A stretch of 64,000 nucleotides of DNA from Brachionus manjavacas. Taxonomy: Eukaryota > Rotifera > Eurotatoria > Ploima > Brachionidae. The notes beneath the pieces are model-generated. The model saw nothing but the letters and a program-made list of their open reading frames with translations. It made no database searches and was not told the DNA's origin. The position numbers were made by a program, and so were the translations under genes. The stretch is taken from positions 4,965,501 through 5,029,500 of the forward strand of contig JAHQIY010000007.1 in assembly GCA_019054805.1 (NCBI GenBank), given 5' to 3'. This document shows, one piece after another, positions 50,589 through 62,494 of the stretch (the stretch's first letter is position 1; every line of letters starts with the position of its first letter).

Positions 50589-52169
50589 ATGTCGTAAGGC
50601 CCTGTTTTAAATGACTTTTTGCAGCATTTTTTAGCCAGCTTGTCCAAAGGTTCAAATCAAAATTTCATGTCTACGACAAGTATTCAGAACACCAGGACCA
50701 GACCCCGCTTGGAAAACTTCAGCAGCAGTACTGGACGACCAGGCAGCAAATGATCAAAAAACTTGGTCAGAAAGAAGATGAGTATGTGGTCATGTCAGAT
50801 GCTGAACTCGACTCCAAGCTAGACGTAACCCTGAATAAACCTTAAAAAAAATATCTAAAAAAATAAATAAATCCAGATGTTCGAGGCCATCGAACAGAGC
50901 TCGGTCCAAATGCTGAAAATAATTGAAATGTACCAGGAAAAATTGATTAATCTGTCCATTGAAGAATCAGAAATGAGTCGACTGCTCAAAAGCCAGTCGA
51001 CTTATGACACCAAGACCAAAGCTGGAAAAATGATGGCTGCCGTAAGCAAATCGCAGAATTTCTCCTCTCAGCAAAGAACTGCACTCCGGCTTCCGCTTGT
51101 TCGTTTGTACAACGAGGTCGAAACCTTTCAGAATAAAGCAATAAGAGACACTTTGATCACAATACGCAAAATGGAGAGCTATCGGACAGAGTACCGGGGC
51201 GCTCTGCTTTGGATGAAAAACGTGTCAAACGAACTGGATCCGGACACGACCAAAAAATTGGAAAAATTCCGCAGAGTTCAGGCCCAAGTCAAAAAGACAA
51301 AGACAAAATTTGACAAATTTAAAAATGACGTCATTCAAAAAATAGATCTGCTGTCGGCCAGTAGGTGTAACATGTTCTCACACGCCTTGGTTAGCTACAC
51401 TCAGACACTGATTATGTTCTGGCAAAAAACTGCCAAAACAATGGGCGCAGTGGCCGACGCGTTCAAAGGCTATCAGTACTATGAATTTAATATAATAAAA
51501 GATTTAGTAGAGCCTAGTCGCAAGCTGGCCCTAATGGTAAACAGAACGGAGTCTCAGGAAGAAGCAATGAAGAAAGAAAATGAAGAAAAAAGTGACGAAA
51601 AATTAGTTGAGATTGAACAAAATGAAAAAGAAGATCAAATAAATGAACTGATTGATCTAATAACTGAGTCTGAGTCGAGTGTATTGAATGAACAGCTAAA
51701 AGAACTCGAGCTCCTAGACCAGGAGAAAAAGGAAAAACTGAACAAAATACAGAAAGAACAGGCAAATAAATCACCGTCTAGTTTATTGTTCAACTTTGCC
51801 AAGACTAATGAAGACAATGATTTGATTAATCTAGATTCTTTGAATACAAGTTTAAAATTTACTCATTTTAATGAGCTATTGAACACGTCCACCGCCGAAT
51901 TCGAAAAGGAATGGGAGTCGGCGTTGGTCACCAGCAATAATTTAGAAAGAAGTTTTTCTCCCCAAAATGAAGAAGAATTTGGCATGTTTACATCAGCGAT
52001 AGATGCTGTGAAAAATATGAAAAATTGTGAAAAGCAAGCTGTGTCTGAGAATGAGAAATCGACGAGCAAACAAAGCAACTGGATTGATTTGTTTGCGGAG
52101 CTGGATCCATTGAAAAACCCGGACTCTATTGGAAAAAAAGATGGACAAGAAGAAGAAAGAAATTGTTAA
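50589..52169 (+). CDS. ICA1: Islet cell autoantigen 1 homologue (ICA69, BAR-domain protein)
   Basis: Exon 1 is only ATGTC (50589-50593), exon 2 is 50635-50824 and exon 3 is 50877-52169. The joined CDS is 1488 nt, 495 residues, close to human ICA1 (483). The N-terminal arfaptin-homology/BAR domain is clear: LQQQYWTTRQQMIKKLGQKE, DEYVVMSDAELDSKL, TKAGKMMAAVSKSQNFSSQQ, YRTEYRGALLWMKNVSNELD and FDKFKNDVIQKIDLLSASRC. A Glu-rich linker follows, then the conserved C-terminal WIDLFAELDPLKNPDSIG. ICA69 partners PICK1 and Rab2 on Golgi and immature secretory-granule membranes. The 41-bp first intron (50594-50634, GTAAGG..TTTTAG) is the shortest here and its assignment is the least certain part; a start further upstream cannot be excluded. 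Confidence 0.92.
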
Positions 52170-52350
52170 TTTATTTTAAAAAATTTTAGGCGTTTGCATC
52201 CATTTATTTTAAAGTGTTCAAATTTAAATAAAATTAATTAAAAAATTGAAATTTTTAAAAGCTTGACAAAATGATGAAACTAAAAATTGAACAAGAGAAA
52301 TAAGTAGAAACCACGCATTAAAGAAAAGTGGAGGAAATATTTATCGATAA

Positions 52351-52386
52351 AAAATATGGAAGATTCTCAAATAAAAATAGTATAAA
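52351..52386 (+). promoter_or_regulatory. mmr-b (5-repeat) promoter: shared motif and TATA box
   Basis: AAAATATG (52351-52358), 4 nt, ATTCTCAAA (52363-52371), then TATAAA (52381-52386), with the start codon 55 nt after the TATA box. The same bipartite motif with identical internal spacing precedes the other mmr-b gene at 61561-61581. The surrounding upstream sequence is otherwise dissimilar, so conservation suggests function. Confidence 0.5.
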
Positions 52387-52440: not shown

Positions 52441-53814
52441 ATGAAATCAGCAATAGTATTTCTAGCTTGTTTGGCAATTGCCTATTCAGTACCAGTAAAG
52501 CAAATAGCTGAACCAAAAGATTTGGTCGACTTTGCTTTGAACTCTTTGGGTTTAAGTCAAGTCATCGACACTATCCAAGCTTTGGGCACTGACTACTGGA
52601 ACCAAATCAAACAAATTGCCACTCAATTGTTGTTCGCTGGTCAACAAATCTGGCAACAAGCTACAGTCATCTTTCAACAATTGGTCGCTGATTTGCAAAA
52701 CCACGCCACTGATGCTTTGCCATTAGTTGTTCAAGCCATTGGTCAATTGACTTCTTTGGTCGGTCAATCAGGCAAAAGAGATTTGGTCGACTTTGCTTTG
52801 AACTCTTTGGGTTTAAGTCAAGTCATCGACACTATCCAAGCTTTGGGCACTGACTACTGGAACCAAATCAAACAAATTGCCACTCAATTGTTGTTCGCTG
52901 GTCAACAAATCTGGCAACAAGCTACAGTCATCTTTCAACAATTGGTCGCTGATTTGCAAAACCACGCCACTGATGCTTTGCCATTAGTTGTTCAAGCCAT
53001 TGGTCAATTGACTTCTTTGGTCGGTCAATCAGGCAAAAGAGATTTGGTCGACTTTGCTTTGAACTCTTTGGGTTTAAGTCAAGTCATCGACACTATCCAA
53101 GCTTTGGGCACTGACTACTGGAACCAAATCAAACAAATTGCCACTCAATTGTTGTTTGCTGGTCAACAAATCTGGCAACAAGCTACAGTCATCTTTCAAC
53201 AATTGGTCGCTGATTTGCAAAACCACGCAACTGATGCTTTGCCATTAGTTGTTCAAGCCATTGGTCAATTGACTTCTTTGGTCGGTCAATCAGGCAAAAG
53301 AGATTTGGTCGACTTTGCTTTGAACTCTTTGGGTTTAAGTCAAGTCATCGACACTATCCAAGCTTTGGGCACTGACTACTGGAACCAAATCAAACAAATT
53401 GCCACTCAATTGTTGTTCGCTGGTCAACAAATCTGGCAACAAGCTACAGTCGTTTTCCAACAATTGGTCGCTGATTTGCAAAACCACGCCACTGATGCTT
53501 TGCCATTAGTTGTTCAAGCCATTGGTCAATTGACTTCTTTGGTCGGTCAATCAGGCAAAAGAGATTTGGTCGACTTTGCTTTGAACTCCTTGGGATTAGG
53601 TCAAGTCATCGACACCATCCAAGCTTTGGGCACTGACTACTGGAACCAAATCAAACAAATTGCCACTCAATTGTTGTTCGCTGGTCAACAAATCTGGCAA
53701 CAAGCTACAGTCATCTTTCAACAATTGGTCGCTGATTTGCAAAACCACGCAACTGATGCTTTGCCATTAGTTGTCCAAGCCATTGGTCAATTGACTTCTT
53801 TGGTACAAGGATAA
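52441..53814 (+). CDS. mmr-b: Mate recognition pheromone-type secreted repeat protein, five repeats
   Basis: Start chosen at the first ATG (52441), which aligns with the paralogue; 457 residues. A signal peptide (MKSAIVFLACLAIAYS) and a short VPVKQIAEPK spacer precede five head-to-tail units: 52519-52779, 52780-53040, 53041-53301, 53302-53562 and 53563-53814. Each unit is 87 residues with no spacer; the last is cut short (SLVQG, stop). The unit is Gln-rich, amphipathic, Cys-free and has three Asn. Units 1 and 2 are identical in DNA; unit 4 has Val51, unit 5 has Gly13. The signal peptide, 87-codon repeats, five copies and truncated last motif match the Brachionus Type B MMR genes as I recall them. 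That family includes a female surface glycoprotein recognised by males. Each internal junction reads SGKR-DLVD, a possible convertase/amidation site. AATAAA at 53841. The gene lies 271 bp downstream of ICA1. Confidence 0.88.
   Translation: MKSAIVFLACLAIAYSVPVKQIAEPKDLVDFALNSLGLSQVIDTIQALGTDYWNQIKQIATQLLFAGQQIWQQATVIFQQLVADLQNHATDALPLVVQAIGQLTSLVGQSGKRDLVDFALNSLGLSQVIDTIQALGTDYWNQIKQIATQLLFAGQQIWQQATVIFQQLVADLQNHATDALPLVVQAIGQLTSLVGQSGKRDLVDFALNSLGLSQVIDTIQALGTDYWNQIKQIATQLLFAGQQIWQQATVIFQQLVADLQNHATDALPLVVQAIGQLTSLVGQSGKRDLVDFALNSLGLSQVIDTIQALGTDYWNQIKQIATQLLFAGQQIWQQATVVFQQLVADLQNHATDALPLVVQAIGQLTSLVGQSGKRDLVDFALNSLGLGQVIDTIQALGTDYWNQIKQIATQLLFAGQQIWQQATVIFQQLVADLQNHATDALPLVVQAIGQLTSLVQG
52519..53814 (+). 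repeat. Coding minisatellite: 261-bp unit, 4 full + 1 truncated copies
   Basis: The unit begins GATTTGGTCGACTTTGCTTT. Copies differ at only a handful of positions, including synonymous ones. Copies 1 and 2 are identical; copy 3 has TTT for Phe39 and GCA for Ala63; copy 5 carries the CTCCTTGGGATTAGGT variant. This pattern implies recent homogenisation. Confidence 0.95.
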
Positions 53815-54055
53815 ATTAATTATTTTTTATTTGTTTTTTAAATAAACATTGTTAGTTTATTATATTTTTTTATTTGTTTAAAAAAAAACTAATTTGATAT
53901 GTGATCATAAAGTTCCACCTATCTTCATTTTGAAGGTTTCGCGGTCAAATTTTCAAGTTCAAGCATAAATTGAAATTTTGTTTCGTTTTGTAATTTTGTT
54001 CCGTGAAAAAGTTCCATTCAAATCGAAATGAATTTTTTTAGTACCTCAAATTTAA
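53815..54055. other. 3' flank of five-repeat mmr-b
   Basis: Holds the poly(A) signal AATAAA (53841-53846); otherwise AT-rich with no feature recognised. Confidence 0.6.
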
Positions 54056-54058
54056 TTG

Positions 54059-54592
54059 TTTTTTTTTCTTAATTTCAATATTATTTTTAAAGGAAAAACT
54101 ATAATCTACTTTTAAAGAGACCTGACCCCCTACTGACCCCCCATTTTTCTTGAAGAGAATTTAACGAGCTTTCTAAAAATGTGTCTAGTTTTTCTCCAGG
54201 AAGTATAGTTGGTAAAAAATTATTAGTAAAAGTAAAAAATTTCGCCTAATTTAAGTATATCAATTTTAACGTAATTATAAATTTAATACAATTTTAATTT
54301 AATAAAATTGGGAGTCAGTGGGGTGTCAGGTTTCTTTAAAAGTAGATTATAGTTTTTCCTTTAAAAATAATATTGAAATTAAGAAAAAAAACATGACAGT
54401 CAAAAAGCTTTAAAATTCTTGATCGAGTAGTATATCGTTTTAAAACTTTAAAACCCGATTTCAAAATAACTAGGGTCTTTTATTATAATCAAAATATCTC
54501 GAAAACTATACTTCCTGGAGAAAATCTAGACACATTTTTAAAAAGCTCGTTAAATTCTCTTCAAGAAATATGGGGGGTCAGTTGGGGGTCAG
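54059..54592. mobile_element. Interlaced inverted repeats with GGGGGTCAG modules
   Basis: Segment A (54059-54141) is inverted at 54310-54392, and segment B (54122-54210) is inverted at 54504-54592, in the order A-B-A'-B', each pair about 90% or more identical. A and B overlap in a CTGACCCCC-TACTGACCCCCC stretch. Further GGGGGTCAGG copies lie at about 54604 and 54754. There is no coding capacity. Probably a compound foldback transposon; class unknown. Confidence 0.65.
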
Positions 54593-54959
54593 TCGTATAA
54601 AATTGGGGGTCAGGTTTTTAAAAATATAAAAATATTCAATTTTCACAAAAATAATTTTGGAGAAAAAATAATTTTATTCTCAAAAAATAGAGAAAAATTC
54701 AAACTAAATGATATATTAAAACTTTTGAAAATATTTTTGCTTTGCAAAAAAAATGGGGGTCAGGAAATTAAAAAAAACTGTTGGTCAGTGTTTTAGTAGG
54801 ACCCAATTTAATATAAGACTTTTTTTTTTAAAGTAGTAAATTATAATAAAAGTATTCAAATTGAAAAATTACATCAATTAATAAAAAAAAAAAAATTCAT
54901 AATTTAACCGTAAAAAGTTAATACTCACCTCTAAAAATAAAAAAAATCTACAATTATCA

Positions 54960-55350
54960 CAATAAACAATGTACGGCGGCAGCAACCAATGTAAATAGGG
55001 TTCTTGGACAAATCAAGAACTCATTTGCATGCCTAGATCTTGCTACACTGAAAATTTAATACACTAGACTCGTAAGAACACATCTTGAATACGCAGTGAG
55101 TATCTGCAGTTGTGCTTCAGAGTCCGACATATTAATTTTAGAAGAGGTGCAAAGAAGGGCAACAAAATTAGTCAAATCGTTGATGAACGTTTCATATGAG
55201 AATAGACTAAATATCTTGGGACTTAAAAGTCTCGAAGAACGGAGAACTAGAGGATACTTCATTCAAATGTACAAAATAATCAATGGCTTTTTGAAAATTA
55301 ATCTAGTGAATGGTATCAATTCTGCTAAAAGTTTGGCACTATATTTAAGA
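54960..55350 (+). mobile_element. CR1-like LINE C-terminal fragment
   Basis: Frames read AATNVNRVLGQIKNSFACLD, VRTHLEYAVSICSCAS, ILEEVQRRATKLVKSL, MNVSYENRLNILGLKSLEER and RTRGYFIQMYKIINGF: the post-RT C-terminal signature shared with 32392-32750. A stop after LATLKI and loss of the WNSLP block show truncation. Confidence 0.8.
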
Positions 55351-55399
55351 AGGGAGATAAATATGAGGCCTTCCCTCCCTTACCCCTTAAAATTGATTT

Positions 55400-55808
55400 T
55401 TAAGCTTATTCGCAAAATATTTACTTTTCTAAATCTATTTTCTATCTTATTTACTTCAATTAGTAAATATTTTATCTCTGAGTTTTTAACAAACATAATT
55501 TTTCATGGCTTTAATACTTTCATATAAATTTTTAATGCGTGGACAAGTAATATCTAATAATTATCTTCATTACGTTAACTCTTTGTTATTTATAAATAAA
55601 TCTTAAATTTAAAAATTAAGAATTTTATATAATTTTTTAAAAATTATTAACAGCCGTAATAATTTAAAAAAAATTGAAATTAAACAAAATTTAAAAATTT
55701 TCCAAATAAATTTGAAGATTGAATGTATTTTAACTCATGACAAAGATTTCCGGGTCTTTGTTCGTATTTTTCTGAAAGTTGATCATGAGTACAATTATCT
55801 TTAATAGC
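55400..55808. other. AT-rich DNA, nothing recognised
   Basis: No gene or repeat identified. Confidence 0.4.
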
Positions 55809-55811
55809 AAA

Positions 55812-56159
55812 TCAAATTTTTGAATATATGTAAATATCAAATTTAAAAATTGAACTTAAAGCGATTAAATGATTTTGGTTGCGGCATCTTCCACTCATTC
55901 CTGCATTGTGAATAATTTTCCCAAATTTTATCTTGGATAAATCTATAAATCTATTATCGGTTAACTTTGGATGTTGAGATAAAATTTCTTCTTTTTTTTT
56001 TAAATATTCTTTATTATAAATAAAATAAACAATTAAAAATCTTATAAATGTTGAATATTTTATATGGCCAAAAACCAAATGGTTAAGGCAATTCCCGTCT
56101 CCAAGAGTTTTTATGGGTAAATATTCATTTTTCTTCTTTTCAATAAAACTGATTCGGCC
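55812..56159 (-). pseudogene. OTU-family cysteine protease domain fragment
   Basis: The minus-strand frame, open from a TAA near 56160, reads KNEYLPIKTLGDGNCLNHLV: the OTU signature D-G-N-C containing the catalytic Asp/Cys pair. It continues through an Ile/Phe-rich helix and AGMSGRCRNQNHLIALSSIF followed by KFDIYIYSKI. This matches the OTU pattern in which a 'xxALSxxxxxxIxVYS' strand follows. The frame stops before the catalytic His that normally closes the domain, and no ATG begins it. OTU domains occur in deubiquitinases and in several transposon proteins. Given the surrounding debris, a mobile-element origin is likely. Confidence 0.5.
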
Positions 56160-56330
56160 TTAGGTATGCCTCCACCTATATCCTCACTTCAAATTGATGA
56201 ATCAGTGACCAACAAAGGTAGAAGACGAAAAAGCAGTGACTCTAGAGTTTAAAGGACAAGAACAAATCAGGAGGAAAAAAGTGACACTGATGAGGATGTA
56301 ACACATCTCCAAAACATTTTTTTTTTTTTA
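56160..56330 (+). pseudogene. Short basic/acidic coding-like remnant
   Basis: The plus strand reads MPPPISSLQIDESVTNKGRR, KSSDSRV, stop, then RTRTNQEEKSDTDEDVTHLQ before the poly-T start of the next repeat. The composition is protein-like, but the frame is broken and unrecognised. Confidence 0.25.
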
Positions 56331-56745
56331 ATAGTTATTTTTATTTAAAAATTAATTTAAAAAGGCTTCGAGCTAACATACGAAAAGAGCGCAAACTGCA
56401 CATTCGAAGTGAAGCTCCTTCTGCCCAGTAAAAAAAATAAAACAATAATAAAAAAAACAAACATATTTTAAATTACATCATTAAAAATAAATTTTTTCTT
56501 TTTTAAAAAAGAAAAAAGAAAGAACGAAGAAAAGAAAGAAGACAAAAAATTGATAGATTCTAAATTACTATATAAGAGAATCCTGTTCTCATATCAGATC
56601 TTAAAAAAGCTAAGAAACAAATATAAACTAATTAGGACAGTACACGCATACGCAATTCGAATTATAGAGAAAAAGGCACCTACCGGAGTAGAGGTAACCG
56701 ATACTTTAGCTGTGTTTTCAACAAATCACGGAATTATTAAAATAG
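56331..56745 (-). repeat. Inverted copy of the 35.1/35.7-kb repeat family
   Basis: 56331-56585 matches the reverse complement of 35739-35990, and 56663-56735 matches that of 35103-35157. In the 35-kb copy the two blocks are separated by the pogo-like fragment; here they are separated by about 75 bp of other sequence. The comparison suggests that the pogo-like DNA inserted into the 35-kb copy. Confidence 0.7.
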
Positions 56746-56778
56746 AATAAAAAGTTAATCGCAGCCAACAGTAAACTA

Positions 56779-57640
56779 ATGAAAAAGGTTGACAGATTTT
56801 CCAACATGGTTGAATCCTTGAAAGCGCTAATTGAGAAAATTACGGAAAGCATTACTTTGTCGGAATCAAAATTTTCCGCTCGTATAGCTGATCTTGAAAG
56901 CATATTAGCTGCCTTAACAACTAGATTAGAAATTATCGAAAGTAACAACATAGAAATAGATCAAACTAATAAAGACAATAAATAATCAAGAATAGGTTTA
57001 CTTGAAAAAAGAGCAGAAAAAAATTTCTACTTAGAGATCTATTTAACAACAATAGAGCAAGTATAAATACCAATCATTAAATTATAATAATTGAAAAAAT
57101 ATCAAGAGTGACAAAGGCTAAAGAAAATAAAGCTAACAATCTTGTAATCAGTGGTTTTTCGGAATCGAGCAACAAAAACCAACAGGATGCCGACGAAGAT
57201 GAAAGACTCTCGGTCATCAGTCTGTTCAAGTAGATGGGTATTGCCCCATCAAGATTCAACATCAAAGAACAAAATGAATAAGACGGACAAACAAGAATAA
57301 TAAATCTGAGTACCTAATTATTGAATTTGGAACAAAAGAAGAGGCAGATATTGTTAAAAGAAATTCCATAGAATTAAAAAACATCGATCAATACAAGAAT
57401 GTCCTTATTAATCGAGATATAACACCAAATGAAATGGAAGTAGTCAGAGCGAGTAGAAAAGAATGCTCCGAGAGGAATGACAAACTACCCTAAAGTGATG
57501 GGAGGCATAAATACGGAATGTTCCAATGCAACTTTGACCCAAAAAAACATTTTGAATTCGTTTGGGGTCTCAGATTTTGTAAAATCCAGAAAATTGACCG
57601 ATTAATGAGAAGAATCATTTTTTAAAAGTAAACAACATAC
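56779..57640 (+). mobile_element. LINE ORF1-like remnant (coiled coil + RNA-binding region)
   Basis: The frame from ATG 56779 reads MKKVDRFSNMVESLKALIEK and SARIADLESILAALTTRLEI, an amphipathic coiled coil. After stops and shifts come KANNLVISGFSESSNKNQQD (57130-57190), IIEFGTKEEADIVKRNSIEL (57312-57370) and NVLINRDITPNEMEVVRASR (57399-57455). This is the usual order coiled coil, RRM-like strand and 'INRDLTP' tail of LINE ORF1 proteins. Inactive. Confidence 0.6.
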
Positions 57641-57829
57641 AAAGCGGCCCAATAAACAATTAAAAATCACAGAAAAATACAACTTCATTTGAGAATGGAA
57701 AATCGTTCTTTACATGCATTTATACTAACTCAACTTCATTAGTGAACAAATGGGATTCTTTAATTCTTTAATACAAGTTAAAAACTTAAAAGATTTCTCA
57801 AATTTTAACAAAGATCGCGAACAGATTGT

Positions 57830-58295
57830 CGGTAGTGGCGTAGCCATCTATTTCCCGATGTGAGTACATTTAATCAGTTGTACGTTTCGTTTGTCAGACC
57901 ACTTCTAGAGTATGCAGTAGTAGCTTGGATTCCCTATACCAAAAGAGACTCAAAAATTCTCGAACAAATTCAAAGAAGAGATACAAAATTGGCAATTAGC
58001 TTAAAAATCTAGATTATGAATTAAGGCTTACAAGATTGGGACTAACCATAATAAAGGCTTCATGACAAATCGAGTGGTAAAGAGTGGAACAAATCAACGG
58101 AACAAACAGTCGAAGTTGCCAATGCAAAATCCAAGAAAGAATTTAAAAACAAACTCGGTAAAAATTTGAAACTGAAATAATTAATTTTTTCTATTAACAT
58201 AATTTTAATCATTATAAGGATTTCTGTTAAAATCAGACAGCTACCATAGCGAGGCCACATCTTGCTCCGCAGTTAAGCTGCTGTAGGTCATTATT
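57830..58295 (+). mobile_element. LINE RT C-terminal fragment
   Basis: SVVRFVCQTT and, in the next frame, FVRPLLEYAVVAWIPYTKRD (57889-57945), ILEQIQRRDTKLAISL, DYELRLTRLGLTIIKA and, after a deletion, NRVVKEWNKSTEQTVEVANA with KSKKEFKNKLGKNLKLK (about 58065-58180). This is the standard LINE tail, probably from the same insertion as 56779-57640 with a large internal deletion. Confidence 0.75.
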
Positions 58296-58299
58296 ATTT

Positions 58300-59240
58300 T
58301 TATAACTCGCTTTCAACTTCTTTATTTTTAGAAATCAATACTAGATTCTTACGATACATTTCTAATATTCTATCTTAATATCCGGGAACTTTGTCTAGTT
58401 AATTGAGTCTAAAATTTAGCTAAGCAATTATTTAGTTTTTTACCTAATAGCTTCTCTTTATTGAGATCAATATCAGAATAAACTCGATTTTTTTTTGTTA
58501 AATATAATAGTTTAATTTTGGAATCAAATGTTAAGATCTTTGTTTGTATATTATTTTATTGTTTTTCTTCCTTTTTTTGCTTGCTTTTATTGTAAATTTT
58601 TTTTGTTATTAATAATATTGAAATATTTCTTTATCTTTCTAATTTGTCATTTTAATTAATAAAATTTACCAAACAAAAACATTTAAAACATAGAAGAATT
58701 TCCAAGATTGAACCGAATCAAGGCCTTAATTTATTTTTTTTAAAAAATAATTTAAGTATTTAAATAATAATTATTTGTTGGATAAAAAATTTAAAATCAA
58801 ACAATCAAGACTCAACTTAAATTTTCTTTTTAGGGATAAATGTTCATTAGTTGTTATCTATTAGGACACTATACATTAACTTAACATTATATTCCCTATG
58901 AAACAAATATTCAAATAAAATGAACGAGATATTTTAGTATTTTATAAAACTAACAGTTTTCTAATATTGCTCTTAGATTATTAAAATTTCTTCCATTTAA
59001 TTATTTTGCTGGATTATTTGTTTGGTTTTATCGTGTTCTCATAACTTCTTTTCTTTCTGAAACATTCTAGATTTTTTAAATTTCACTTTATTAGAAAATT
59101 ATGAAATTTTTATTATATTTAAATAAAATATATTTTTGAATAAAATTTTTCTATAAATATTAATTTGTGCCTGACAGTAAAAGAAAACAAATATTGATAA
59201 AGATTTAATTTTAAAAAAAATTTCTGGACTTTAAACTTTA
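58300..59240. other. AT-rich DNA, nothing recognised
   Basis: No coding or repeat signal beyond low-complexity A/T. Confidence 0.45.
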
Positions 59241-59242
59241 TT

Positions 59243-59392
59243 ATGGACAAAAAAGCTTTTAAACAGCAAGCAAGTGTAGAAATTAAAAAAGAAAATCATT
59301 GGAACAAAAAATTGATGCCTAACAGAATTAAAAAAAAGGCCGGCAAGTACAAACGTAGCCAATACGGTAAAAATCAGAAACCAGAAACATGA
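59243..59392 (+). CDS. Small basic protein, unrecognised (49 residues)
   Basis: ATG-to-TGA frame beginning MDKKAFKQQASVEIKKENHW and continuing NKKLMPNRIKKKAGKYKRSQ YGKNQKPET. It is Lys/Arg-rich with clusters (RIKKKAGKYKR) typical of nuclear or nucleic-acid-binding peptides. Composition is clearly less AT-biased than its flanks, and AATAAA signals follow near 59449. It could be a standalone small protein or the last exon of a gene whose upstream exons are unseen. No family recognised. Confidence 0.4.
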   Translation: MDKKAFKQQASVEIKKENHWNKKLMPNRIKKKAGKYKRSQYGKNQKPET

Positions 59393-59654
59393 TTTGTATT
59401 TGTAATTTTTCATTTTTAAAACTAATGAAATGTAATTAAAGTAAAAATAAAATTTATTTAATTATCTCACAAAGAGAAAATGCGTTGCAAATTTTAAATA
59501 AAAGAAAAACAATAAATTTTTTAATTGAAATTAATTTTTAATTTTGTTTTGAATTTACTTTCTTAAAAGATGTCTAACATTTCAATCTTGATAATCATGC
59601 AAATTTAATAAAATTAAATTAAAATTAAAAATAAAAATTTTTTTTTTAAAGAAG

Positions 59655-59875
59655 ATATTATTTATAAATAAATAATAAAAACTAAATTCTCCCCTTTAAC
59701 CTCCCTTAAATTCTCACCAAAAGATTTTCTGGAAGAGTTGCTGTTCGTAGCGACTAGGCTGCTGACCATAGCGGCATTAGGTGTCTCCCCAGGAAATCCT
59801 CCGAAAATCTTAATTGCATCCCACATCAAACTCTGGACCAGTTTGAACCCTTGAAGGTCGAACATTACATTACAT
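59655..59875 (-). mobile_element. LINE 3'-end-like fragment (tentative)
   Basis: The minus strand reads MFDLQGFKLVQSLMWDAIKI, FGGFPGETPNAAMVSSLVAT and NSNSSRKSFGENLREVKGE. The short NAA-rich, GC-richer tail resembles the region after the WNSLP block of LINE polyproteins here (for example 58180-58290 and 62700). No RT motif is present, so the assignment is weak; it could be an exon. Confidence 0.3.
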
Positions 59876-59879
59876 TCTT

Positions 59880-60119
59880 TTTTTATTTATTCTTAAAAAC
59901 AAAATTTCGTTAACTAAAATTGAAATTTTTCATTTAGAATTTTAGGAATATGATTTTAAGTAAATTTTTGATTTGAAGACATAAAAAAATGCCTATCAAA
60001 AATATAATCATTTAACGTCATATAAATGCTACGTGTTTCAATTTTGAATTACTTTAAAAAAATTTGAAATTTTGGTCTTAATCTATTCTCACAAATTATT
60101 ATTTTTAACTGATTTAATA
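59880..60119. other. SEC13 5' flank
   Basis: AT-rich promoter and leader region; no consensus element stands out. Confidence 0.4.
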
Positions 60120-61293
60120 ATGGTAAGTTACTCCAATAATAAAAATAATAAAAATCTTTAAAAAAATTAATAAAGACTTCAATTTTAAATACAGTGGACA
60201 CAAGTCATGAAGATTTGATCGTAAATCAAATGCAACAACTTAATTGAACTCAAAAAATAATTTTTTTTCAATTTTAGCATGATGCTGCTTTGGATTACTA
60301 TGGATTAAAGCTAGCTACCTGTTCATCGGATCGTTCAGTGAAAATTTTTGATGCCCAAAAAAATCAAAAAACTCTTATTGAAGATCTCCGAAAGTTATAA
60401 AAGTTTTTTAATTTCATTTACCAAATAAACACTTTAAAAATCATTTTGAAAATTTTAATTTTTTTCCAGACATGAAGGCCCTGTTTGGCAAGTTTCATGG
60501 GCCCATCCAATGTTCGGAAATTATTTGGCATCATGCTCCTATGATAAAAAAGTGATTGTTTGGAAAGAAATGAGCAGCAACAAGTGGACACCATTTTATA
60601 TTTATCAAGGCCATGAATCGTCAGGTAAATAGAATAATTATAAGAAAAAAAAGAAAAAAAGTTAATTATTTATTCAAATTAGTTAATACAGTAAGTTGGG
60701 CCCCTTGTGAATTTGGCCTTGTATTTGCTTGTGGCAGCTCGGATGGTTGCATAAGCATAGTTTCTTTAAGTGGTGATGGAAATTGGGTAGCAAGAAAAAT
60801 AGACAATGCTCATCCAACTGGCTGTACTTCGCTAAATTGGGCGCCAGCGTTTCCATCCGATGATCAGAACGAGTCTGTGTTTAGCGCAAAAAGGATAGTC
60901 TCCGGAGGATGTGATAACACAGTTAAAATATGGAGAGAAGATCAAAGTGGTCAGTGGGTTTTGGATCAAAATCTACAAGGACACACAGATTGGGTACGAG
61001 ATGTTGCTTGGTCACAGAACATAATTCACAATAAAACTAACATAGCCAGCTGCTCTCAGTCAGGGAAAGTGATCATTTGGTCCTGTGATCTGAGCGATAC
61101 AACAAATGGCGCATTGTCTATTTGGAAATCAAAAGTTCTTCATGAATTCAATACAGTGGCATGGCATGTAAGCTGGTCATTAACAAGTAATATGCTTGCT
61201 GTATCGACCGGAGATAATAAAGTAACAATATGGAAAGAAGACCATTTGGGAAAATATGAATGCATTAATGATGATAAACTTGGAAATTTATAA
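60120..61293 (+). CDS. SEC13: SEC13 (COPII / nuclear pore WD40 protein), five exons
   Basis: Coding exons: 60120-60122 (the ATG alone), 60176-60220, 60278-60393, 60470-60624 and 60683-61293. Introns are 53, 57, 76 and 58 bp. The joined CDS is 930 nt, 309 residues (human 322). It begins [19 protein letters not shown], matching the SEC13 N-terminal DTSHED blade-insertion strand. Six WD40 blades follow: [94 protein letters not shown] and [17 protein letters not shown]13 pairs with SEC31 in the COPII coat, with NUP145C/NUP96 in the nuclear pore Y-complex, and in GATOR2. Exon phases were checked at every junction; the ATG-only first coding exon is unusual but gives the best match to the family N-terminus. 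Confidence 0.93.
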
Positions 61294-61560
61294 TAACATA
61301 AAATGTATTTATTGCTGTTTTTTGTCTAAAACTTGAAAAAAAAATTTTAATTTAGAATCAAGTTATTGATTAACAAATCGAATTTTTTAAAAACCAAATT
61401 TAAAATAAAAATAAAAAGAATTTAAATAAAAAGTCAATTGTTGAGAATCAGAAAATTTATTAATGACCATCGAAAAAATCGAACACCCTCGAGAAAAATT
61501 AAAAAATATTGAAAAATATGAGAATTAGACAAAAAATGATAACACGAATAGGGCGTAGAA

Positions 61561-61604
61561 AAAATATGACATATTCTCAAAGCAAAAATTTGAAATTATA
61601 TAAA
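61561..61604 (+). promoter_or_regulatory. mmr-b (3-repeat) promoter: shared motif and TATA box
   Basis: AAAATATG (61561-61568), 4 nt, ATTCTCAAA (61573-61581), then TATATAAA (61597-61604), 38 nt before the start codon. The bipartite word and its spacing match 52351-52371 exactly. Confidence 0.5.
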
Positions 61605-61642
61605 AGAAAGAACAAAAAAAAAATGAGTTAGAAGAAGAAAAT

Positions 61643-62494
61643 ATGAAATCATTAATAATATTAGTAGCTTGTTTGGCAATAGCCTATTCAGTACCAGTTA
61701 AGCAAATAGCTGAACCAAAAGATTTGGTCGACTTTGCTTTGAACTCCTTGGGATTAGGTCAAGTCATCGACACCATCCAAGCTTTGGGCACTGACTACTG
61801 GAACCAAATCAAACAAATTGCCACTCAATTGTTGTTCGCTGGTCAACAAATCTGGCAACAAGCTACAGTCGTTTTCCAACAATTGGTCGCTGATTTGCAA
61901 AACCACGCCACTGATGCTTTGCCATTAGTTGTCCAAGCCATTGGTCAATTGACTTCTTTGGTCGGTCAATCAGGCAAAAGAGATTTGGTCGACTTTGCTT
62001 TGAACTCTTTGGGTTTAAGTCAAGTCATCGACACCATCCAAGCTTTGGGCACTGACTACTGGAACCAAATCAAACAAATTGCCACTCAATTGTTGTTCGC
62101 TGGTCAACAAATCTGGCAACAAGCTACAGTCGTTTTCCAACAATTGGTCGCTGATTTGCAAAACCACGCCACAGATGCTTTGCCATTAGTTGTCCAAGCC
62201 ATTGGTCAATTGACTTCGTTGGTCGGTCAATCAGGCAAAAGAGATTTGGTCGACTTTGCTTTGAACTCTTTGGGTTTAAGTCAAGTCATCGACACTATCC
62301 AAGCTTTGGGCACTGACTACTGGAACCAAATCAAACAAATTGCCACTCAATTGTTGTTTGCTGGTCAACAAATCTGGCAACAAGCTACAGTCATCTTTCA
62401 ACAATTGGTCGCTGATTTGCAAAACCACGCCACTGATGCTTTGCCATTAGTTGTCCAAGCCATTGGTCAATTGACTTCTTTGGTTCAAGGTTAA
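61643..62494 (+). CDS. mmr-b: Mate recognition pheromone-type secreted repeat protein, three repeats
   Basis: 283 residues: signal peptide MKSLIILVACLAIAYS, spacer VPVKQIAEPK, then units at 61721-61981, 61982-62242 and 62243-62494 (last truncated, SLVQG). After signal removal about 267 residues remain, roughly 29 kDa by residue count. That agrees with the 29-kDa protein reported to trigger male circling in Brachionus and attributed to the three-repeat Type B gene. Each unit has Asn in LNSL, WNQI and QNHA contexts. Unit 1 carries Gly13/Val51, unit 2 Ser13/Val51, unit 3 Ser13/Ile51. Internal junctions are SGKR-DLVD. AATAAA at 62519-62524. It starts 349 bp after SEC13 ends, on the same strand, with its own TATA box. 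Function is inferred from recalled literature on the family. Confidence 0.9.
   Translation: MKSLIILVACLAIAYSVPVKQIAEPKDLVDFALNSLGLGQVIDTIQALGTDYWNQIKQIATQLLFAGQQIWQQATVVFQQLVADLQNHATDALPLVVQAIGQLTSLVGQSGKRDLVDFALNSLGLSQVIDTIQALGTDYWNQIKQIATQLLFAGQQIWQQATVVFQQLVADLQNHATDALPLVVQAIGQLTSLVGQSGKRDLVDFALNSLGLSQVIDTIQALGTDYWNQIKQIATQLLFAGQQIWQQATVIFQQLVADLQNHATDALPLVVQAIGQLTSLVQG
61721..62494 (+). repeat. Coding minisatellite: 261-bp unit, 2 full + 1 truncated copies
   Basis: Same unit as 52519-53814. Copies differ by a few substitutions. Copy 1 shares the CTCCTTGGGATTAGGT block with copy 5 of the other gene. Confidence 0.95.

What the first reader, a model, noticed from the sequence alone, without database searches (positions are those of the whole stretch)
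52441..62494. Two mate-recognition-pheromone (mmr-b type) genes in one 10-kb block
Five- and three-copy versions of an 87-codon coding repeat, each behind a signal peptide with a truncated last copy, lie in the same orientation 7.8 kb apart. Seen: unit boundaries, copy numbers and near-identity. Known (recalled, Brachionus manjavacas work): Type B genes with three and five repeats, the three-repeat product being 29 kDa and affecting male circling on RNAi. Inference: these are those two loci or direct orthologues, and they are physically linked. The linkage places a reproductive-isolation signal in one small region.
Basis: partly seen in the sequence, partly recalled or inferred. Interest (0 to 1): 0.92.

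Follow-up and report, generated by a model that had tools for sequence, protein, structure and literature searches.

The report
Linked rotifer mate-recognition gene copies
Two known genes for the female surface protein by which male rotifers recognise mates lie side by side here, with a further copy nearby, so the signal can be studied as one small genomic region.

Summary
In detail: window 52441-53814 and 61643-62494 encode a signal peptide plus five and three near-identical 87-codon repeats, the last copy truncated, 7.8 kb apart. They are mmr-b genes of Brachionus manjavacas: two published B. manjavacas sequences match this genome exactly; the three-repeat gene has the published MMR-B3 coding length and all six published pI/charge values, and both amplicon sizes agree to 1 bp. 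It is not letter-identical: the published pattern of repeat differences is not matched.

A third, eight-repeat mmr-b gene lies 94 kb downstream, inverted, with mismatches at the published primer sites. An mmr-a array lies 1.30 Mb away on the same contig; one three-repeat member has the predicted mature mass of MMR-B3 (27.9 kDa). A distant paralogue lies elsewhere. The three mmr-b flanks no longer align although repeats are 95-100% identical, which points to homogenisation between loci. The 2012 paper left open whether mmr-b copies share a chromosome; I found no later answer in the papers searchable here.

The parts
52441..53814 (+). mmr-b five-repeat gene (B5), 457 aa, one open frame
   Evidence: published amplicon 1338 bp, in-silico 1337
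52441..52518 (+). B5 signal peptide (16 codons) and 10-codon spacer ending in Lys
   Evidence: the 16+10 split follows PMC2746195, no signal-peptide program was run
52519..53562 (+). B5 full repeats 1-4 (261 bp each), each ending SGKR
53563..53814 (+). B5 terminal repeat, 81 codons then Gln-Gly-stop
61643..62494 (+). mmr-b three-repeat gene (B3), 283 aa, the published MMR-B3 locus or an allele/orthologue of it
61643..61720 (+). B3 signal peptide and spacer ending in Lys
61721..62242 (+). B3 full repeats 1-2, each ending SGKR
62243..62494 (+). B3 terminal repeat, 81 codons then Gln-Gly-stop
52349..52368 (+). promoter-like box of B5, shared with B3 and the third gene at -92/-84/-80 (weak)
   Evidence: 1 of 150 shuffles reaches the score; an earlier test with other settings found a different best match and was not significant (48 of 200)
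61559..61578 (+). the same promoter-like box of B3 (weak)

Best explanation
This is the mmr-b (mate recognition protein) locus of Brachionus manjavacas. Three genes of three, five and eight 87-aa repeats, each one open frame, lie within 106 kb, with the third inverted; the first two are in the window. Each encodes a secreted, acidic protein of amphipathic-helix repeats (helix: inferred; surface display: published for the family). The published N-terminus of the mature protein is the first residue of repeat 1, which here follows a Lys, so the spacer is cut off after a basic residue. The protein sits on the female surface, where males sense it by contact (published). The loci are old duplicates whose repeat-coding DNA is kept alike by exchange between loci, probably gene conversion or unequal crossing-over (inferred from diverged flanks, shared multi-site haplotypes and identical repeats at different loci). 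A change in one repeat can therefore spread through all the genes that display the signal. Shown here: gene structure, species match, linkage as assembled, third copy, flank/repeat contrast. Inferred: mechanism of exchange and the consequence for mate choice.
For: Structure and repeats. Species. Match to published MMR-B3: coding length, pI/charge 6 of 6, amplicon sizes to 1 bp. Third gene C7:5121980-5124136 minus; 16 of the 42 genome matches listed are type B and all 16 lie in these three genes (the search scores only the best candidates). Flanks: among the three mmr-b genes, 1.5 kb up- and downstream gives only matches of 80 bp or less, while the 16 repeats differ by 0-4.6% over 240 nt. B5 repeat 3 equals four B8 repeats over 240 nt, and a linked three-site haplotype recurs in 5 of 16 repeats across all three loci. 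Codon bias alone is a poor fit: same-codon use at shared residues is 34 of 47 between types A and B but 93-97% between mmr-b loci.
Against: Repeats are still more alike within than between loci (2.93 against 4.86 differences per 240 nt; 56 of 5000 label shuffles reach this), so homogenisation is incomplete. The published internal pattern of MMR-B3 and its masses are not matched exactly. Published RNAi effect is small (17%, P = 0.043), and A+B combined gave none. No reads, expression or protein data could be examined here. There is no N-X-S/T sequon in any of the three B or four intact A genes, although the historic signal was sensitive to N-glycanase.
Confidence: 0.82

Rival explanations
1. 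The MMR products are pro-proteins: cleavage after the basic residue at every repeat junction releases several ~9-kDa helical units, as in nematode polyprotein allergens. The repeated gene is then a way to make many copies of a small (perhaps amidated or lipid-binding) protein.
For: The published Edman N-terminus is the first Asp of repeat 1, which in these genes follows Lys (mmr-b) or Arg (mmr-a). Every internal junction of the intact genes offers the same kind of context: 13 of 13 mmr-b junctions read SGKR|D and 15 of 15 mmr-a junctions read VQR|D. The distant paralogue ends in SGR and has SGR just before its MMR domain. Intact A and B genes end in Gly, 7 of 7. Cu2_monooxygen (PAM-type) and convertase P-domain matches exist in the genome (12 and 7 listed). 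Nematode polyprotein allergens are cleaved tandem polyproteins (abstract of PMC3079579).
Against: The active band was 29 kD, the size of the uncut three-repeat protein. The joints and Gly ends can be shared by descent, and the enzyme families are general animal genes. No match to the nematode family appeared in Pfam, NCBIfam or PDB sequence searches.
Confidence: 0.2
2. The genes serve mainly a constitutive surface or matrix role, and mate recognition is a secondary use of an abundant female coat protein.
For: Sequences matching MRP are among the most expressed genes in both obligately parthenogenetic and cyclic B. calyciflorus, and those authors propose a separate constitutive function (PMC3701536, passages). 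The 2012 authors also think origin as matrix proteins more likely.
Against: [quoted passage not shown] The two roles are not exclusive.
Confidence: 0.35
3. The near-identity of repeats across loci reflects codon bias plus purifying selection, not exchange between loci.
For: Codon use is biased (for example 15 of 15 Gln codons of the first B5 repeat are CAA), and the 2012 paper reports strong purifying selection and codon bias.
Against: Types A and B share codons at only 34 of 47 shared residues, against 93-97% between mmr-b loci. Variants occur as linked haplotypes shared between loci, and similarity falls off beyond the stop codon.
Confidence: 0.1
4. The linkage or the copy numbers are assembly artefacts.
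For: Near-identical arrays are hard to assemble, and no reads were available.
Against: Very different flanks surround each gene. The three- and five-repeat counts agree with independent PCR cloning from B. manjavacas. A WD40 gene separates the window genes.
Confidence: 0.04

Closest known systems
mmr-b genes MMR-B3 (GQ374518) and MMR-B5 of Brachionus manjavacas (PMC2746195, PMC3495898)
   Same: Signal peptide, spacer, 261-bp full repeats, truncated terminal repeat, single open frame, 3 and 5 repeats; for B3 the 849-nt coding region and identical pI and charge values; both amplicons to 1 bp
   Different: Repeat-to-repeat differences do not follow the published single-synonymous pattern. The MMRBR primer site has 1 (B3) and 6 (B5) mismatches and the MMRBF site 0 and 1. 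A third gene is present here, and linkage is resolved as assembled.
mmr-a genes MMR-A4 and MMR-A7 (same papers)
   Same: Same architecture, about 57% identical repeats, no asparagine in the mature part, tandem array (published for two copies on one fosmid)
   Different: 92-aa repeats, junction VQR|D. Here four intact genes (3, 8, 4, 4 repeats), one disrupted five-repeat copy and one single-repeat fragment, 1.30 Mb from mmr-b
Nematode polyprotein allergens (ABA-1; PMC3079579, abstract and one section read)
   Same: Helical protein encoded as near-identical tandem units: a works-like comparison only
   Different: No sequence relationship detected. Cleavage of MMR at internal joints is not shown.

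Membership tests
mmr-b (mate recognition protein, Type B) | Signal peptide, then full repeats of 87 codons (261 bp) with no codons between | tested here: met
   signal peptide judged by eye, no program run
mmr-b (mate recognition protein, Type B) | Terminal repeat cut at codon 81 and continued by two other codons | tested here: met
   Gln-Gly-stop in both genes
mmr-b (mate recognition protein, Type B) | Three asparagines per repeat, none in an N-X-S/T sequon; QSGK motif at residues 83-86 | tested here: met
   9 Asn in 3 repeats, 15 in 5; no sequon; QSGK in 6 of 6 full repeats of the window
mmr-b (mate recognition protein, Type B) | MMR-B3 coding length 849 nt, pI 4.26/4.16/4.02, charge -9.4/-10.1/-11.1 | tested here: met
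   with EMBOSS-style pK values (recalled); Biopython's own values differ
mmr-b (mate recognition protein, Type B) | MMR-B3 masses 30.9/29.2/28.1 kDa | tested here: inconclusive
   30.73/29.04/27.95 kDa, 0.15-0.17 below
mmr-b (mate recognition protein, Type B) | MMR-B3 repeats differ by single synonymous changes | tested here: not met
   repeats 1 and 2 differ at 5 sites of the first 243 (one nonsynonymous), 2 and 3 at 8. This speaks against identity with the published clone, not against membership of mmr-b, whose repeats vary between isolates
mmr-b (mate recognition protein, Type B) | Letter-by-letter alignment to GQ374518 / ADU18105 | not testable with these tools
   I know of no collection on hand that holds these records
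mmr-b (mate recognition protein, Type B) | On the female surface; silencing lowers male circling | not testable with these tools
   published for MMR-B3
Nematode polyprotein allergen family | Sequence match to the family | tested here: not met
   Searches (Pfam; NCBIfam; PDB sequences): no such match listed

The most novel reading that the evidence does not exclude
The 29-kD 'mate recognition pheromone' band was not one protein. It mixed products of MMR-B3 and of a three-repeat mmr-a gene, both predicted at 27.9 kDa, as the mixed Edman calls suggest. MMR precursors are cut at the basic joint of every repeat into small helical units, so gene length sets dose rather than identity. The distant paralogue (28.2 kDa without an assumed 19-aa signal peptide, two N-glycosylation sequons, one MMR domain) may be the N-glycanase-sensitive 29-kD surface glycoprotein described before the gene was cloned. 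The three mmr-b genes act as one conversion-linked locus for the signal.
Probability: 0.1. Interest if true: 0.8.

Novelty: new member of a known kind. Interest (0 to 1): 0.52.

Why it matters
The 2012 paper that proposed mmr-b as a speciation gene stated that genome projects would have to show whether its copies lie on one chromosome or are scattered. In this assembly the three mmr-b genes found sit within 106 kb of one contig, and the mmr-a array is on the same contig. That makes the proposed rapid spread of a change through all copies physically plausible and directly testable, and allows the genes to be removed or followed together. The inventory also reopens two points. RNAi against MMR-B3 is unlikely to separate it from its near-identical linked copies (inference). 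And a three-repeat mmr-a gene, whose absence was one argument for assigning the 29-kD band to MMR-B3, exists in this genome.

Tried and rejected
Pfam: the whole three-repeat protein scores DUF1048 at E = 1.7e-8, above its cut-off, with several weaker matches to unrelated families. A single repeat scores only E = 0.024, below the cut-off, so I take the strong value to come from counting one weak match three times; rejected. PDB sequence searches gave nothing better than E = 0.59. NCBIfam gave none for a single repeat and none over a cut-off for the whole protein. Relatives in bacteria or archaea: 46 stretches matched a pattern in genome contigs, none encoded a relative (one scan). The N-terminal part of the C11 paralogue was tested for degenerate MMR repeats; none found (best E about 0.1). 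A first promoter test was not significant (48 of 200 shuffles); a second with other word length, region, weights and position limits gave 1 of 150; I treat the box as weak for that reason. That no mmr-b linkage was found in print rests on searches of open-licence PMC papers (search listings, of which 20 showed 20 of 23 and 70 showed 20 of 32 papers; passages of a few). Subscription papers, including the family paper that the 2012 paper cites as ref. 27, were not seen.
Full report
OBSERVATION. The two arrays exist as described. Tandem Repeats Finder finds one 261-bp family twice, with 4.9 and 2.9 copies, far above any other array in the window (scores 2497 and 1460 against 86). The ORFs are 457 and 283 aa. 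Each starts with a hydrophobic signal peptide (by eye) and a short spacer ending in Lys. Full repeats end SGKR, and the last repeat stops after 81 codons with Gln-Gly-stop. The intergenic distance is 7,828 bp.

SPECIES AND IDENTITY. The genome (114.2 Mb, 61 contigs; window = C7:4965501-5029500) matches a 40-nt B. manjavacas mlh3 sequence and a 20-nt vasa guide from PMC10395877 exactly, once each. That paper used the Russian strain, the strain name of the original MRP work. I had no other Brachionus genome as a negative control, so the species call rests on these exact matches plus the gene-level match. The window's three-repeat gene has a coding length of 849 nt. With EMBOSS-style pK values (recalled) it gives pI 4.26/4.16/4.02 and charge -9.4/-10.1/-11.1 for the full, signal-less and repeat-only protein, equal to the six values printed for MMR-B3. 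In-silico PCR gives 815 and 1337 bp against printed 816 and 1338 for BmanRUS. Against identity with the published clone: printed repeats differ by single synonymous changes, while here repeats 1 and 2 differ at 5 sites including Gly/Ser at codon 13, and repeats 2 and 3 at 8 sites. Masses are 30.73/29.04/27.95 kDa against printed 30.9/29.2/28.1. I conclude same locus or orthologue, with a different allele or isolate, or errors in one record.

THE REST OF THE FAMILY. A genome-wide search lists 42 matches (only best candidates are scored, so a lower bound): 16 type-B repeats in three genes, 25 type-A repeats in one array, and 1 distant match. The third mmr-b gene (B8, eight repeats, 718 aa) is at C7:5121980-5124136 on the minus strand, 94 kb beyond B3. 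The published forward primer mismatches it at its 3'-terminal base; the reverse primer has 7 mismatches, all away from its 3' end. This may explain why PCR from B. manjavacas yielded only two products. B5 has 1 forward and 6 reverse mismatches yet a five-repeat product was amplified, so the explanation rests on the forward primer, and absence of B8 in the published isolate is not excluded. The mmr-a array (C7:3669216-3718155, minus) holds intact genes of 3, 8, 4 and 4 repeats, a five-repeat copy with an internal stop and no start in frame, and a single-repeat fragment. On C11 a 266-aa protein with a signal-peptide-like start carries one MMR domain (40-46% identity) from residue 181, after a stretch without detectable repeats. 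It has two N-X-S/T sequons; the seven intact A and B genes have none.

HOW THE COPIES EVOLVE. Flanks of the three mmr-b genes show only matches of 80 bp or less over 1.5 kb either side, while repeats differ by 0-4.6%. The first 48 coding nt differ at 4-9 sites, more than the repeats do. Fourteen of the first 243 repeat sites vary among the 16 copies. Three linked variants travel together in 5 of 16 repeats spread over all three loci, four variants are shared by B5 repeat 5 and B3 repeat 1, and B5 repeat 3 is identical over 240 nt to four B8 repeats. Same-codon use at shared residues is 34 of 47 between types A and B and 93-97% between mmr-b loci. Together this points to old loci homogenised by exchange of repeat-coding DNA, including with an inverted gene. 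Homogenisation is incomplete: within-locus repeats are still closer on average (2.93 against 4.86 differences; 56 of 5000 shuffles). The mmr-a array differs: A8 and A4a share about 99% identical flanks on both sides and A4b shares the downstream flank only, so part of it has grown by recent segmental duplication, while A3 has diverged flanks.

MECHANISM. Best supported is the published model: a secreted female surface protein sensed by males (PMC2746195, parts 1-4 of 6 read; PMC3495898, parts 1-5 of 7 read). A hydrophobic-moment scan agrees with amphipathic helices over much of the repeat, clearest in 18-residue windows starting at residues 13-17 and 61-65; the first two windows are not above shuffles (329 and 168 of 500). 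The fold could not be predicted. Two points bear on the published assignment. First, the calls of the first Edman run fit type B at 12 of 15 positions, type A at 12-13 of 15, and the two together at 15 of 15, leaving Tyr-4 and Glu-5 unexplained. That comparison uses this genome's sequences, not the authors' clones. Second, the authors had found no mmr-a gene that could make a 29-kD protein, but here A3 predicts 27.9 kDa, the same as B3. A mixed band is therefore possible, but A-type RNAi had no effect on circling. RNAi with MMR-B3 should also hit B5 and B8, given 97-99% mean identity between loci (inference).

PROCESSING. The published Edman N-terminus is Asp-1 of repeat 1, which here follows Lys or Arg. 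All 13 internal mmr-b joints and all 15 internal joints of the four intact mmr-a genes have a basic residue before the same Asp-Leu. Whether they are cut is unknown; the 29-kD size argues that at least some product stays whole.

NOVELTY. The genes in the window are known. The linkage, the third B. manjavacas mmr-b gene, the larger mmr-a array with a three-repeat member, and the distant paralogue were not found in print (searches; open-licence papers only, listings and passages). The 2012 paper named the linkage question as open and suggested, from two mmr-a copies on one fosmid, that other family members might be arrayed. The result therefore confirms a stated expectation rather than overturning one.

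Noticed in passing
window 54060-54592: Foldback structure between the two genes: inverted arms 54122-54236/54478-54592 (115 nt, 86%) and 54060-54176/54275-54391 (117 nt, 84%), perhaps a non-autonomous mobile element.
   Followed up: partly
window 50877-52169 (+): Open frame with Arfaptin and ICA69 domains directly upstream of the five-repeat gene (Pfam E 8.5e-59 and 1.7e-10).
   Followed up: partly
window 60101-61293 (+): WD40-repeat gene between the two mmr-b genes (Pfam WD40 on the frame 60574-61290); SEC13-like by recall only, first exons inferred by eye.
   Followed up: partly
G000:C11:1942277-1943074 (-), L049: 266-aa protein with a signal-peptide-like start, one MMR domain, two N-glycosylation sequons and a C-terminal SGR: a third, distant branch of the family.
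   Followed up: partly
G000:C7:3669216-3718155 (-), L012-L017: mmr-a array with four intact genes, one disrupted copy and one fragment; A4b shares its 3' flank (about 99%) but not its 5' flank with A8 and A4a, suggesting a breakpoint within the gene.
   Followed up: partly
window 52349-52368 and 61559-61578: AT-rich box with ATTCTC/ATTCCC core 80-92 bp before the start codon of the three mmr-b genes, whose upstream DNA otherwise hardly aligns.
   Followed up: partly
window 55060-55527 (+): 155-codon open frame resembling a retroelement remnant by eye; no Pfam match at E 0.001.
   Followed up: partly
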